Virus record (IMG/VR): IMGVR_UViG_3300044821_000022
Span: 1 to 29,575 of that record
Length of the DNA stretch: 29,575 nucleotides
Source: a virus
Strand: one strand, 5' to 3'
In this document: positions 7,951-29,575 of the stretch, in pieces
Layout of the letters: every line of letters begins with the position of its first letter
Numbering within the stretch: position 1 is the first letter of the stretch
Notes under the pieces: generated by a model
Told to the model about the DNA's origin: nothing
The model's database searches: none
What the model saw: the letters and a program-made list of their open reading frames with translations, nothing else
Position numbers and translations under genes: made by a program

Positions 7951-7957
7951 ATATCAC

Positions 7958-8086
7958 CTATGACGGTCGTTGTTTTAAACACTCTGGACAGGTTACTTCT
8001 CTCCATTTGTAACTTGACCAATCTTGGCCGTTAGTTTTACACATAAATAACCCATTCTCATCCCGCATATGTACATTAGGCGTCAT
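7958..8086 (-). CDS. 42-residue CxxC protein
   Basis: ATG with AAGGAG 5 bases upstream. The product has one upstream Cys (FMCKTNG) and a CPEC pair near the C-terminus (VTCPECLKQRP), a minimal zinc-ribbon-like layout. Its first bases overlap the stop of the upstream gene (ATGA), so translation is probably coupled. No family recognised. Confidence 0.6.
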   Translation of the reverse strand: MTPNVHMRDENGLFMCKTNGQDWSSYKWREVTCPECLKQRPS

Positions 8087-8217
8087 AGAGTCTCCTTAGA
8101 AATTAGATCTAGCAGTACTTTCCGCAATGTAGCCGCGTTTGTTCCTAGTTCTTTGGCCAATCGACGCATAATCTCGTCGCCTTCTAATCGTTGGGTACCA
8201 CACGGGTCGTAGGGCAT
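8083..8217 (-). CDS. 44-residue helical protein, HTH-like
   Basis: ATG preceded by AAGGAG. The sequence EIMRRLAKELGTNAATLRKVL has the look of a short helix-turn-helix (helix, GTN turn, helix), but the protein is too short for a full domain. It is coupled to the downstream CxxC gene by ATGA overlap. Function unknown. Confidence 0.55.
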   Translation of the reverse strand: MPYDPCGTQRLEGDEIMRRLAKELGTNAATLRKVLLDLISKETL

Positions 8218-8218
8218 A

Positions 8219-8290
8219 TTAGTCTCCTTCTACAGGACAAAAAGGGCACGCATCACCACAATAGATGGCTCCACATTCAGAACATTTCAT
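8219..8290 (-). CDS. 23-residue Cys-rich microprotein
   Basis: ATG with AAGGAG 5 bases upstream. The 23 residues contain five Cys: CSEC, then C and CPFC (MKCSECGAIYCGDACPFCP), enough for a single zinc knuckle. The gene fits exactly between two co-directional genes. Without the ribosome site it would not be callable; no family recognised. Confidence 0.5.
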   Translation of the reverse strand: MKCSECGAIYCGDACPFCPVEGD

Positions 8291-8292
8291 AG

Positions 8293-8484
8293 TTACTCCT
8301 TCCAATCAATAAATACACTGCCGCTCCCATACATCATGACGTCTCGTATAGCGTCTTCTATTTTTCCTTCAATCTTATGCTTATACATATATTCTACAAT
8401 GTTCTCGAGCATTTTCTTGCGGCGCCACCAGAAAGGGTTAAAATAAGTATACCAATGTAGCGGTGTAATTTTAAAACGCGTTAT
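8293..8484 (-). CDS. Small basic protein, probable non-ATG (ATA) start
   Basis: The frame continues upstream of the first ATG (8412, 39 residues) with protein-like sequence ITPLHWYTYFNPFWWRRKK, but no ATG, GTG or TTG occurs before the upstream stop codon in this frame. An ATA at 8484 overlaps the TAA of the preceding gene as ATAA, and GGAG lies 7 bases before it, giving 63 residues. The C-terminal part is helical and charged (IEGKIEDAIRDVMMYG). The ATG at 8412 is the conservative alternative. No family recognised. Confidence 0.5.
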   Translation of the reverse strand: MTRFKITPLHWYTYFNPFWWRRKKMLENIVEYMYKHKIEGKIEDAIRDVMMYGSGSVFIDWKE

Positions 8485-8657
8485 TTTCCCTCTCCGTCTG
8501 TTAGTTTCTCGAAATTATACGTCTCTTTGGCCGCCTTCTTCCTTTTCACTTCGCGTTTTATATCTGTGTCTGATCTACCCCAGAAGTACTCGATTAACAG
8601 CACGATAAGAATGGCCGTCTCTATCACTCGATCATAAAGATGGCCCCATTCAATCAT
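8481..8657 (-). CDS. 58-residue single-span membrane protein
   Basis: The start is taken at the ATG at 8657, with GGGAGGG upstream and an ATGA overlap with the previous gene; a longer reading from 8687 has no such site. One transmembrane segment (VIETAILIVLLIEYFW, about residues 11-26) is followed by a strongly basic, helical cytoplasmic-type tail (DIKREVKRKKAAKE). Small membrane protein of unknown role. Confidence 0.6.
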   Translation of the reverse strand: MIEWGHLYDRVIETAILIVLLIEYFWGRSDTDIKREVKRKKAAKETYNFEKLTDGEGK

Positions 8658-8845
8658 AAAGTTGCCCTCCCATGATTGCATAGACAAGTACCGGTATATC
8701 CGATATATCCCTGTTTACAACACGGCGCCGTACACGCAGCCAGATTTGTATAAAACGTAGGCGTCGGAGCATACTGCTGGAGTGAATCGCGTTCCCTAGC
8801 TCTAACTTGCGTACAATCATGACACTCGCACCGTTCCTGGTTCAT
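8654..8845 (-). CDS. 63-residue Cys-rich protein
   Basis: Starts by ATGA overlap with the upstream gene. It has eight Cys in two clusters: CECHDC near the N-terminus and CTAPCCKQGYIGYTGTCLC near the C-terminus, which could hold one or two zinc ions or disulfides. No signal peptide, so zinc binding in the cytoplasm is more likely. Function unknown. Confidence 0.6.
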   Translation of the reverse strand: MNQERCECHDCTQVRARERDSLQQYAPTPTFYTNLAACTAPCCKQGYIGYTGTCLCNHGRATL

Positions 8846-9060
8846 TTCCCAGCCGCCTTGCGCCAGGCTTCGAGCGCATCTTTATCTAATTTGCCCAATG
8901 GCACTTTATCTTCAAATAAACAAACTATAGTCTCTGCCGCTTCCAGCCGGGCGAGGAAGGCTCTAATTTCTTCGTCTGTATCGAAATAATTGCAAACGTC
9001 GATATCTGGCCATTCGTTTAATTTTCTTTTTAATTCTTTCAAATCCTCATCTGTGAACAT
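8842..9060 (-). CDS. Acidic helical hypothetical protein
   Basis: A 72-residue protein with high Asp/Glu content and a helical pattern (DEDLKELKRKLNEW, DEEIRAFLARLEAAE). AAGGAGAAAATAA precedes the ATG. It abuts the KOW-like gene upstream (stop and start adjacent). No family recognised. Confidence 0.6.
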   Translation of the reverse strand: MFTDEDLKELKRKLNEWPDIDVCNYFDTDEEIRAFLARLEAAETIVCLFEDKVPLGKLDKDALEAWRKAAGK

Positions 9061-9270
9061 TTATTTTCTCCTTAACGGTTTCTTTACTTTTATATAGTCT
9101 TCTCCAACTCGACAGGCGTATCCACTTGGCAACCTAATCGTATACTCATACCAGTAATCTGTTAATCCCAAATTATAACCCTCGAAGTCTACTACAATAC
9201 CGGTTTGTTTCGCATAGTAGCCTGTTGTTAGGACGACTTTTGTCCCGCAAGCTAATGGTGGCTTATTCAC
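9061..9270 (-). CDS. KOW/SH3-like small beta protein
   Basis: A 69-residue protein. CGTKVVLTTGYYAKQTGIVVDFEG resembles a KOW motif: a hydrophobic strand, then a G at the tight turn, then a second strand (G-I-V-V). The remaining strands (YWYEYTIRLPSG, YIKVKK) suggest a small barrel. KOW proteins bind nucleic acid or protein in transcription and translation; that role is only a suggestion. GGAGGATAAATT lies upstream of the start. Confidence 0.5.
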   Translation of the reverse strand: MNKPPLACGTKVVLTTGYYAKQTGIVVDFEGYNLGLTDYWYEYTIRLPSGYACRVGEDYIKVKKPLRRK

Positions 9271-9281
9271 AATTTATCCTC

Positions 9282-9404
9282 CTACGCCCATCCCCATAAT
9301 AACGCAGTAATTTGTTCGACCATACACTTTGCATTATCGTATTCATCGTTGTAAATGTTAAACTCTCCTTTACACCACACTGTTAATCCTTCGATATCGG
9401 TCAT
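9282..9404 (-). CDS. 40-residue hypothetical protein
   Basis: ATG with AAGGAGGG upstream, coupled to the previous gene by ATGA. The product is acidic with two Cys and a hydrophobic C-terminus (ITALLWGWA). No family recognised; the strong ribosome site is the main evidence. Confidence 0.5.
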   Translation of the reverse strand: MTDIEGLTVWCKGEFNIYNDEYDNAKCMVEQITALLWGWA

Positions 9405-9571
9405 TTAACCCTCCTTTTATTCAACCGCCAGCGGTAAATCCCCCACCCAATAATCAAGTAGACTAAGTATCCTATCAAGAGCGTCTGTAGACGCATAGAA
9501 GCACCAACATACACCCACGTCCCATCACTCCACAACCGTAGATATGTCCCTAACCCGTCTGTGATTGTCAT
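9401..9571 (-). CDS. 56-residue single-span membrane protein
   Basis: ATGA overlap with the upstream gene and GAGGAG 5 bases before the ATG. The C-terminal half has one transmembrane span (LLIGYLVYLIIGWGIY) followed by a very basic tail (RWRLNKRRVK), predicting an inside C-terminus. Unknown role. Confidence 0.6.
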   Translation of the reverse strand: MTITDGLGTYLRLWSDGTWVYVGASMRLQTLLIGYLVYLIIGWGIYRWRLNKRRVK

Positions 9572-9768
9572 GCTTTCTCCTCTGGTTTAGGCAACAGAAT
9601 ACTCAATCCCATCCTTACTCCTACGATCTTAGCGTGTAAAGGGCTATAGAACACCTCATCTGCCGCATGTAAGGTGGCATTCATCTTAGCCATATGCTCG
9701 AAGTACTTTTGACAGTCTTCTAATACAGCGTCAATCTTCTGTAATTCTCGTTGAACATTCTTGTTCAT
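9568..9768 (-). CDS. Helical hypothetical protein
   Basis: A 66-residue protein with a helical, coiled-coil-like N-terminus (VQRELQKIDAVLEDCQKYFEH) and a hydrophobic C-terminal segment (IVGVRMGLSILLPKP). It starts one base after the stop of the protease gene, in the same direction. No family recognised. Confidence 0.6.
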   Translation of the reverse strand: MNKNVQRELQKIDAVLEDCQKYFEHMAKMNATLHAADEVFYSPLHAKIVGVRMGLSILLPKPEEKA

Positions 9769-9769
9769 T

Positions 9770-23215: not shown

Positions 23216-23354
23216 GATGGCCGGTCCCTTCTGTCTCAATTGCTCCGCATTCAGGGTTAAGACAAACCCAATAACCACCGCCGTCAAATGTAGACTTCCA
23301 TTCTAACTTATGCTCTCCTTGCATCGATGACTTAGAATGACAGATAGAGATCAT
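23205..23354 (-). CDS. 49-residue Cys-containing protein
   Basis: ATGA overlap with the collagen-like gene and GGGG just upstream. The product has CHS near the start, YWVCLNPECG in the middle and a His-rich end (GTGHHGG), a possible zinc-binding set. It overlaps the next gene's start by 11 bases. No family recognised. Confidence 0.5.
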   Translation of the reverse strand: MISICHSKSSMQGEHKLEWKSTFDGGGYWVCLNPECGAIETEGTGHHGG

Positions 23355-23968
23355 TTTAACCCCAACTTTCTTTTTAGTTCATCTAGTTCACGCTGTTCGT
23401 AAGACCGCCCAAGCTTGATCTGTACCACGGCAATGTCCACCGTATGGTTGTAATGCTTCACGTCGTAACGGTAGCCGCTGTTCAGGGATACGTACTTCCA
23501 GTCATACCAGCGAACATCTAAACCCACGTTCAGGAACAGGTTATTGTTGATATTAGCGTCCACACCATCGCGGCCGTCTTTACCATCTTTCCCGTCTTTA
23601 CCCTTAGCTCCAGTATCACCCTTTGATCCTGTAACGCCTTGTGTACCTTGAGCACCAGCAGCTCCAGCGCTCCCCTTCAACTGAGAGAGCGGCACATAGT
23701 CGATGTCTGTGGTGTTATGCGGAGCGTTTGGATCCTGTTCGCCAGCTGCCGGATCACCGACGCGGTTGTATTCAACTGGCACATAGAATTGTCCGTTAGG
23801 TGCTTGTGTAGGATGGTCATAGATCGTCGTTACGCCTAACCCTGAAGCTCCAGCTTTCGCGTCATGTTCTGCTTGACTATCTGTTACTGCCGGATAGTTG
23901 AGACCTAAATCAGCACGAGCGACGCTAGCCGTCAAGATCGTTGCTATGAATACCGCTAGTTTGTTCAT
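23351..23968 (-). CDS. Secreted collagen-like protein
   Basis: A 205-residue protein with a Sec-type signal peptide (MNKLAVFIATILTASVARA). Residues about 99-135 are collagen-like Gly-X-Y triplets (GVTGSKGDTGAKGKDG and repeats of GKD), preceded by a polar region. The C-terminal third is beta-rich (NNLFLNVGLDVRWYDWKYV, SGYRYDVKHYNH). The end is charged and coiled (EQRELDELKRKLG). Collagen-like segments are frequent in phage fibres, but this one is in the early strand and secreted, so it probably acts in the host envelope or outside (inference). Confidence 0.7.
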   Translation of the reverse strand: MNKLAVFIATILTASVARADLGLNYPAVTDSQAEHDAKAGASGLGVTTIYDHPTQAPNGQFYVPVEYNRVGDPAAGEQDPNAPHNTTDIDYVPLSQLKGSAGAAGAQGTQGVTGSKGDTGAKGKDGKDGKDGRDGVDANINNNLFLNVGLDVRWYDWKYVSLNSGYRYDVKHYNHTVDIAVVQIKLGRSYEQRELDELKRKLGLK

Positions 23969-27341: not shown

Positions 27342-27838
27342 ACTGTACCTATGATTGCTCCAATTTTATTTAATATATCGTCAAGATTCTGCTTGTTTGA
27401 TCCATCATAATTTATAAATGGAATGCTATTTTTAATTTTCATAACGTTTTCAAAACTCATCGCAGCGCGCATATTCATAGTGTTATCTACTAATTCTTGC
27501 TGTTTACTAACTTTAAGCCTTTTATTAGCGAGTTTAATATCTGTTGACGCGTATATTAAAATAGCTTTCATTGATTTTAGCATATATTCAATTACACGAA
27601 ACTCGCGCTCATTAATGCCTATCGTACCGCGAAACATTGGCCCATAAACTAATTCACCAAGATGGAACCTATCACAAACTGTTGAATATTTTAAATCTAA
27701 TAAAAAATCTATATACTCATCCGCCGGGCGCCTTTTCGGTGGTCCAGAGTGATAGTAATGATAGCCAAACCGCTTAGCAATAGCTTTAGCTAACGTAGTC
27801 TTTCCCGTTTTGTCTGCGCCTTCAATTATAATTAACAT
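27332..27838 (-). CDS. Thymidylate kinase-like P-loop nucleotide kinase
   Basis: A 168-residue protein with Walker A GADKTGKTT (residues 7-15, Lys13) and a DRFHLGELVYGP segment (Asp56-Arg57), as in phage dNMP kinase and related P-loop kinases. The C-terminal half is more divergent and AT-rich. It would phosphorylate a dNMP to the diphosphate, or, as in some phages with hypermodified thymidine, phosphorylate a modified base in DNA. Its overlap with the ThyA-like gene supports a shared pathway. Confidence 0.75.
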   Translation of the reverse strand: MLIIIEGADKTGKTTLAKAIAKRFGYHYYHSGPPKRRPADEYIDFLLDLKYSTVCDRFHLGELVYGPMFRGTIGINEREFRVIEYMLKSMKAILIYASTDIKLANKRLKVSKQQELVDNTMNMRAAMSFENVMKIKNSIPFINYDGSNKQNLDDILNKIGAIIGTVCL

Positions 27839-28176
27839 TATCGCTCCATTTCCGCTTTAATAAGATTATACGCGGCCATGTTGCCTTTAACCCATTTCTT
27901 AATACGCGCTTCAATCGCTTTGATATGTTTGGCTACCCCTTGGTGCGAGATGCCAAGCTCGGCCCCTATCTCATCTTGTGTAAGCTTGTCATAGTTGTAA
28001 AGGGCCCACACCCGCTTCTGCCGGGGCGTGAGATACTTCGCGGCCTCACGCACCAGCAGCTGCTCTGGTGTAGGATGCTGTTGACCAGGAGTAGCACCAG
28101 CAAACGGGTGATTCGGAGATAAACTCTCCAAACTTACCCCAATTGGGTTCTTAATCTTATCTTGATTTCTTTTCAT
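27838..28176 (-). CDS. Sigma-70 region 4-like helix-turn-helix regulator
   Basis: A 112-residue protein. The C-terminal half has LTPRQKRVWALYNYDKLTQD followed by EIGAELGISHQGVAKHIKA, the sigma region 4 type HTH (about residues 50-93). The N-terminal 45 residues are polar and unassigned. It would recognise a -35-type sequence or act as an early/late switch; its binding site is unknown. The ribosome site is weak and distant, and the stop overlaps the kinase start (TAATG). Confidence 0.75.
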   Translation of the reverse strand: MKRNQDKIKNPIGVSLESLSPNHPFAGATPGQQHPTPEQLLVREAAKYLTPRQKRVWALYNYDKLTQDEIGAELGISHQGVAKHIKAIEARIKKWVKGNMAAYNLIKAEMER

Positions 28177-28557: not shown

Positions 28558-28743
28558 CTACTCAGCTACTATCTTAGGGCTAACAATCCCTTGATCTGTT
28601 GAAGACGGTTCATCATATGCCTCATCGCGATTACCAGTATCGAATGATACCTTGTCGCTAAGCATAAACCCTTTGAATTCTTTCCAACAGACATCGTGGA
28701 CACCCTTATTCGTTCTACCGCTACAGAACACACATTTAAGCAT
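28558..28743 (-). CDS. 61-residue CxxC protein, first gene of the early run
   Basis: Read from ATG 28743, with AGGAG 6 bases upstream. CVFCSGRTNKGVHDVCW gives CxxC plus HxxxC zinc ligands; the tail is acidic. It is the first gene after promoter copy A (leader of about 32 bases). Function unknown; early host-takeover or regulatory role is possible. Confidence 0.65.
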   Translation of the reverse strand: MLKCVFCSGRTNKGVHDVCWKEFKGFMLSDKVSFDTGNRDEAYDEPSSTDQGIVSPKIVAE

Positions 28744-28781: not shown

Positions 28782-28816
28782 ATTATACCCCCAGAACACA
28801 GGAATGTAAATAGGTC
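28782..28816 (-). promoter_or_regulatory. Strong promoter-like 35-bp repeat, copy A
   Basis: On the minus strand: -35-like TTTACA (28810-28805), a 17-base spacer and -10 TATAAT (28787-28782), close to the sigma-70 consensus. It is the most upstream copy and is placed correctly to drive the entire minus-strand run. The spacer carries the shared GTTCTGGGGG. Confidence 0.8.
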
Positions 28817-28831
28817 CAACAGCCCAATTTG

Positions 28832-29011
28832 ATGAGCCAGATAAACTATACACCTGAACAACGCAAGCGAGCCTATCAAGACCTGATCGAGTCTTGCTAC
28901 AATCGAGATCATCTTCCCCGCCTGTTAGAAAAAGCGGCTAAGCTCTACGGGGTGCTCAAGACGACGGATCTTACAGATTTACTTAAACAGAAACGAGCCA
29001 AGAAGTACTAG
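28832..29011 (+). CDS. Small plus-strand hypothetical protein
   Basis: ATG 28832 encodes 59 residues with helical, charged character (TPEQRKRAYQDLIESCYN, RLLEKAAKLYGVL, LTDLLKQKRAKKY). There is no clear ribosome site. It faces away from the early run, next to promoter copy A. No family recognised. Confidence 0.5.
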   Translation: MSQINYTPEQRKRAYQDLIESCYNRDHLPRLLEKAAKLYGVLKTTDLTDLLKQKRAKKY

Positions 29012-29083
29012 TTGGACATGCACTAGCTATCGAGAGCTTGACCCACTCTCCCATAGCGACGCTCACGAGGCGAAATGTCCATA

Positions 29084-29107
29084 GAGAGATATAGATCTAT
29101 CTCTCTG
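29084..29107. repeat. 9-bp inverted repeat
   Basis: AGAGAGATA (29084-29092) pairs with TATCTCTCT (29099-29107) across a 6-base loop. No T-run follows, so it is more like a protein-binding or recombination element than a terminator. Confidence 0.6.
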
Positions 29108-29161
29108 TAAATAGATACTCTGGGTCCTTTCTGATATCTTACGACAGACGAGTTAATCGCC

Positions 29162-29263
29162 TAGTAAAGAATAGAAGAACTAGCGAGCTAGAATACTAGT
29201 AAGCTAGAGTATCTAATCCCTAGGAGATTAGATTGCTAGGATTATCTATCCTGTAATCCTAGT
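29162..29263. repeat. CTAG-dense cluster with two hairpins and a direct repeat
   Basis: CTAG occurs eight times (29162, 29181, 29189, 29197, 29205, 29221, 29237, 29260). A 14-base direct repeat ACTAG(C/T)(G/A)AGCTAGA recurs at 29180 and 29196. Hairpins are TCTAATC/GATTAGA (29213-29219 with 29227-29233) and CTAGGATTA/TAATCCTAG (29237-29245 with 29255-29263). Confidence 0.65.
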
Positions 29264-29348
29264 AGCTTTATTAGCCAAACGGGAGAATTTAAGCGGATAG
29301 TAGACTTATAATCGCTGAGATGCGCCAAAGTTGCAAACATTTGTTAAG

Positions 29349-29368
29349 ATTAATTAATTTTAATTAAT
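29349..29368. repeat. AT-rich palindrome, possible unwinding element
   Basis: ATTAATTAA and TTAATTAAT form 9-bp arms around a 2-base centre. The surrounding 60 bases are highly AT-rich, with further short repeats (GTTAA...TTAAC), as at DNA-unwinding elements. Confidence 0.55.
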
Positions 29369-29422
29369 GTTAACACGATTTAACATGTTACATAGCTGTA
29401 AAGCTTACAGAGATGTAAAGAC

Positions 29423-29466
29423 TAGGCGAATGTGGCGCTTGATTAGCTGAATGGGGTAGGCGAATG
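29423..29466. repeat. Direct repeat TAGGCGAATG
   Basis: Two exact copies (29423-29432 and 29457-29466), spaced 34 bases start to start, downstream of the AT-rich palindrome. They could be binding sites for an initiator or regulator. Confidence 0.45.
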
Positions 29467-29575
29467 GTAAGCGTGTGGGGGTTTTTTAAGCGCAGCCCTA
29501 CGAAGTGTCTTCCACCCTACAATCTAATTATAACAGGTATTTGGGTAGAATGTAACCCCCCTGTATAAGATTTTA

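What the first reader, a model, noticed from the sequence alone, without database searches (positions are those of the whole stretch)
29012..29575. CTAG-dense, hairpin-rich non-coding region
CTAG is under-represented in many bacterial genomes, yet eight copies fall in about 100 bases (29162-29263), with two perfect 7-9-bp hairpins, a tandem 14-base repeat, and an AT-rich palindrome and direct repeats behind it. Together this looks like an origin or a protein-docking control region rather than chance.
Basis: seen in the sequence. Interest (0 to 1): 0.6.

Follow-up and report, generated by a model that had tools for sequence, protein, structure and literature searches.

The report
Phage early-gene control region, CTAG-rich
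A short stretch of viral DNA between two oppositely read gene blocks of a bacteriophage carries a genuine cluster of CTAG repeats and hairpins, most likely the on/off control region for its early genes and possibly also where DNA copying starts; it is an ordinary kind of region, and the repeat cluster itself is not shared by the closest relative found.

Summary
Eight CTAGs lie in 102 bases (29161-29262), none of 5000 random placements gave this, and six of them are in one 8-bp phase. Three hairpins and an AT-rich palindrome are also real. The premise that CTAG is rare fails here (observed/expected 0.89). The window is a 29.6-kb linear fragment of an uncultured tailed-phage contig. In five relatives whose contigs run through the matching place, it is the strand switch between the early/replication module and the terminase/structural module. 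That gap carries a sigma70-type promoter match facing the early genes in the window and four of the five. It holds the AT-richest (or tied) 50 bp of the contig in the window and three relatives. The CTAG array is not conserved: the closest relative (mostly 47-71% identical proteins) has background CTAG in this gap, though three more distant relatives have 7-9 per kb. Eight-bp-spaced CTAG is not generally favoured in other phage DNA. Best reading: a divergent early control region with a lineage-specific array of NNCTAGNN operator-like sites. Origin and packaging site remain open rivals. Interest is modest.

The parts
29012..29575 (.). Non-coding end of the contig; by comparison with relatives, the divergent gap between the early/replication module and the terminase/structural module
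   Evidence: No ORF above 34 aa; relatives' gene maps
29161..29262 (.). CTAG cluster: 8 copies, six in 8-bp phase (29180, 29188, 29196, 29204, 29220, 29236); read as NNCTAGNN octamers or an imperfect 16-bp direct repeat
29083..29106 (.). Hairpin/dyad, 9-bp arms, 6-nt loop (11 pairs on the + strand with a G-U pair, 29081-29108)
29211..29233 (.). Hairpin/dyad ATCTAATC...GATTAGAT with CCTAGG in the loop
29236..29262 (+). Hairpin/dyad CTAGGATTA...TAATCCTAG, 9-bp arms (12 pairs on the + strand); weak terminator-like site on + strand (29233-29265, then CTTTATT)
29342..29375 (.). AT-rich palindrome TGTTAAGATTAATTAA/TTAATTAATGTTAACA, inside the AT-richest 50 bp of the contig
29388..29420 (.). 17-bp imperfect tandem repeat including dyad CTGTAA-AGC-TTACAG (29396-29410)
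   Evidence: sequence
29527..29556 (-). Promoter-like site GTTACA-18-TATAAT facing the early genes; it would transcribe through the array
   Evidence: consensus match only
28782..28810 (-). Best promoter-like site TTTACA-17-TATAAT just upstream of the leftward early operon
   Evidence: similar sites face the early genes in four relatives
28558..28743 (-). Small ORF (61 aa, CxxC) with AGGAG ribosome site, probable first gene of the early operon
   Evidence: sequence
28832..29011 (+). Small ORF, 59 aa, no known relative; may or may not be a gene
27838..28176 (-). HTH protein, sigma-70 region 4-like (112 aa), a candidate regulator

Best explanation
The region is the divergent early control region of an uncultured tailed phage. 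Shown: it is non-coding and holds a non-random CTAG array, dyads and the contig's AT-richest 50 bp; in relatives the same place separates early/replication genes from terminase/structural genes and has a sigma70-type promoter match facing the early genes. Inferred: host RNA polymerase starts the early operon from the promoters at 29556-29527 and 28810-28782. A small DNA-binding protein, phage- or host-coded, sits as dimers on the short palindromic NNCTAGNN boxes in 8-bp steps, shutting early transcription down or switching to the divergent late transcript. The array is lineage-specific, as operators of fast-evolving phages usually are.
For: Cluster and 8-bp phase beyond chance. Position at the strand switch in relatives. 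Promoter matches of at least 10/12 facing the early genes in the window and in G001, G002, G003 and G006. AT-richest 50 bp in the same gap in the window, G002 and G006, and tied in G003. One relative (G006) has a comparable AT-rich, CTAG-bearing repeat region in the same gap next to the small terminase gene. CTAG cores and tandem 8-base boxes are known repressor-site designs (PMC1166578; PMC12925634).
Against: The nearest relative (G001) has neither CTAG enrichment nor long repeats there. Eight-bp spacing of CTAG is not preferred in other phage DNA, and degenerate 8-bp arrays are only about twice as common as 10-bp ones. No cognate protein was identified. Promoter calls are consensus matches, no more numerous in the region than in shuffles (2 found, 3.1 expected).
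Confidence: 0.48

Rival explanations
1. Replication origin: the CTAG repeats are iterons for an initiator and the TTAATTAA palindrome is the unwinding element.
For: Repeats beside the contig's AT-richest 50 bp, a feature kept in position in three relatives. In G001 the cumulative GC-skew minimum (15-16 kb) falls at the equivalent strand switch. Polymerase and primase-helicase genes lie in the adjoining module.
Against: The skew turn is equally explained by the change of gene orientation. AT-richness is also typical of promoters. The repeats are not conserved and no initiator was identified.
Confidence: 0.27
2. Packaging (pac/cos) site: repeats bound by the small terminase subunit, whose gene would lie just to the right.
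For: Relatives begin the opposite module with terminase genes; in G006 the small-terminase gene borders the gap directly. A separate phage contig (L020) also has an 8-bp CTAG array about 130 bp from a small-terminase gene.
Against: Contig ends of most relatives lie elsewhere; the array is not conserved in G001.
Confidence: 0.1
3. Structured RNA: consecutive hairpins in a + strand transcript, ending in a weak terminator at 29233-29265.
For: RNA folding z = -3.4, and two of three stems are longer on the + strand through G-U pairs; terminator-like site.
Against: Minus strand and DNA fold nearly as well; no Rfam match; no + strand promoter found.
Confidence: 0.08
4. No selected function: diverged leftovers of a short tandem duplication in a non-coding gap.
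For: Imperfect 16-bp repeat; no conservation in G001; many phage CTAG arrays are plain tandem repeats.
Against: Dyads and the 8-bp phase persist although the bases between the CTAGs have diverged.
Confidence: 0.07

Closest known systems
Tandem 8-bp repressor boxes (MetJ met boxes; TrpR operators)
   Same: Short palindromic boxes in 8-bp steps near promoters; CTAG is the core of known repressor sites (PMC1166578) and met boxes are contiguous 8-base units (PMC12925634)
   Different: Sequence differs from the met-box consensus AGACGTCT; no MetJ- or TrpR-like protein found in the window; regulator unknown
Phage early promoter/operator regions at divergent module boundaries
   Same: Position, sigma70-type promoter matches facing the early genes, AT-rich DNA, repeats
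   Different: The CTAG array is particular to this phage and absent from its nearest relative found
Iteron-type replication origins
   Same: Direct repeats beside an AT-rich segment, near a skew turn in a relative
   Different: No initiator identified; repeats are degenerate and not conserved

Membership tests
Phage divergent early control region | Lies between oppositely transcribed early and structural modules | tested here: met
   Not visible in the window itself (the contig ends), but met in the relatives whose contigs span it
Phage divergent early control region | Promoter facing the early genes | tested here: inconclusive
   Consensus match present in the window and four relatives, but matches in the window region are no more numerous than in shuffles
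Phage divergent early control region | Regulator binds the repeats | not testable with these tools
   Needs footprinting
MetJ/TrpR-type tandem operator | Boxes repeated every 8 bp | tested here: met
   Six of eight CTAGs in phase, P about 0.007
MetJ/TrpR-type tandem operator | Cognate MetJ/TrpR-family protein encoded nearby | tested here: not met
   No such Pfam match among the window proteins scanned; the host, which could supply one, is unknown
Iteron-type replication origin | AT-rich unwinding segment next to repeats | tested here: met
Iteron-type replication origin | Repeats conserved among relatives | tested here: not met
Iteron-type replication origin | Replication starts there | not testable with these tools
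   No sequencing depth or replication data
Phage packaging site (pac/cos) | Adjacent to the terminase genes and cut or bound by terminase | tested here: inconclusive
   Adjacent to terminase genes in relatives; cutting or binding not testable

The most novel reading that the evidence does not exclude
A phage-coded regulator or initiator of an unknown family binds tandem NNCTAGNN boxes in 8-bp steps, making a new class of operator/origin array that also occurs, degenerate, in unrelated phages.
Probability: 0.07. Interest if true: 0.55.

Novelty: new member of a known kind. Interest (0 to 1): 0.25.

Why it matters
It gives a testable candidate for the transcription and replication switch of an uncultured phage lineage, with a clear binding-site pattern that could be used to find its regulator. 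Otherwise it is an ordinary control region, and it shows that a rare-tetramer argument must be checked against the genome in hand.

Tried and rejected
Rarity of CTAG as such: rejected, observed/expected is 0.89. A general phage preference for 8-bp CTAG spacing: rejected, distance 8 is not enriched in 2.3 Mb of other phage sequence, and 11 degenerate 8-bp arrays against 5 at 10 bp and 2 at 7 bp (that scan was truncated) is weak. That those arrays are always intergenic is trivial, because phased CTAGs put stops in all six frames. Terminal repeats at the contig ends: no shared 12-mer in direct orientation. tRNA and Rfam matches: none in the window. Near DNA matches in phage and plasmid records: none; distant matches were short and chance-like. 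Host through genome contigs: no hit. Shared 10-mers between relatives' gaps: only scattered. CTAG enrichment of the gap across five relatives: 20 against 11.7 expected, P 0.017, uneven.

Full report
What the window is. The window is a complete record of 29,575 bases in the viral contig collection, classed linear, so probably a fragment. It carries a T7-type exonuclease, a family-A-like DNA polymerase, a primase-helicase, RNA ligase, thymidylate synthase and other early genes on the minus strand (about 6.8-28.7 kb), and genes on the plus strand at 1-6.7 kb. It has no near DNA match among phage or plasmid records.

The observation. CTAG occurs 106 times in the window against 118 expected, so it is not depleted. 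The cluster of eight in 102 bases is nevertheless far beyond chance. Six of the eight CTAGs lie in one 8-bp phase and the stretch resembles itself most at lags 16 and 8. Aligned in eights, it reads AACTAGCG AGCTAGAA TACTAGTA AGCTAGAG TATCTAAT CCCTAGGA GATTAGAT TGCTAGGA (sequence). Three hairpins and a 34-bp AT-rich palindrome are present. The structures fold about three standard deviations better than shuffles, but about equally so on both strands and as DNA, so folding does not tell RNA from DNA dyads.

The surroundings. To the left are a 59-aa plus-strand ORF without known relatives and the probable start of the leftward early operon, with a promoter-like TTTACA-17-TATAAT at 28810-28782 and a second site at 29556-29527.

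Relatives. The exonuclease found nine relatives in viral contigs. The best, G001 (49.9 kb), shares much of the early module and several plus-strand genes, mostly at 47-71% identity. Reading outward from the early genes in relatives shows a strand switch: early genes one way, terminase and structural genes the other. In G006 the small terminase gene borders the gap directly. The window's right end therefore most likely lies in this switch; this is an inference from relatives, because the window stops before the next gene. In that gap a promoter match of at least 10/12 faces the early genes in the window, G001, G002, G003 and G006. The AT-richest 50 bp of the sequence held lies there in the window, G002 and G006, tied in G003 and loosely in G005, but not in G001. 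In G001, the relative in which skew was computed, the cumulative GC-skew minimum falls at the switch, as expected either from an origin or simply from gene orientation.

Conservation of the repeats. G006 has an AT-rich, CTAG-bearing direct and inverted repeat region in the same gap, with different sequence. CTAG density in the gap is raised in G002, G005 and G006, but not in G001 or G003; in total 20 against 11.7 expected from other non-coding DNA. The array is therefore lineage-specific, while the position and AT-richness are shared more widely.

Is 8-bp spaced CTAG a general phage device? A scan of 2.9 million viral contigs found 57 distinct loci with four CTAGs at 8-bp steps. Twenty-four were plain tandem repeats and 11 had unrelated spacers, against 5 of the latter at 10-bp steps. 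Distance 8 was not enriched in 2.3 Mb of other phage sequence. The general claim is not supported.

Mechanism. I favour a control region in which a small dimeric DNA-binding protein occupies tandem palindromic CTAG-centred boxes and governs early transcription. The design resembles tandem met boxes (eight-base units in contiguous copies, PMC12925634) and CTAG-cored Trp and Met repressor sites (PMC1166578). That TrpR operators carry CTAG half-sites 8 bp apart is from my own knowledge. No MetJ- or TrpR-like protein was found in the window, so this is a likeness, not membership. Origin and packaging-site readings fit the position nearly as well and cannot be excluded.

Verdict.

Noticed in passing
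window 28832-29011 (+): 59-aa ORF with no relative in any library searched, ending where the CTAG region begins; its AAKLYGV stretch recalls small helix-turn-helix proteins, but no family matched.
   Followed up: partly
window 23351-23968 (-): Collagen-like triple-helix repeat protein inside the early/replication module of the phage.
   Followed up: no
window 7951-9769: 1.8-kb stretch without a listed ORF of 80 aa or more, next to the convergent end of the two gene blocks; unexplained.
   Followed up: no
L309:14883-14996: 57-bp tandem repeat (93%) with CTAG and AGTAACAGCT boxes in an AT-rich gap next to the small-terminase gene of a distant relative.
   Followed up: partly
L045, L033, L066, L068, L020: Apparently unrelated phage contigs with intergenic islands dense in CTAG with varied spacers, for example next to a ParA gene in L033 and a small-terminase gene in L020.
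   Followed up: partly
L308:10891-10965 (+): An odd tRNA gene (two-base anticodon 'tt', isotype not called by ARAGORN) in the strand-switch gap of relative G005.
   Followed up: partly
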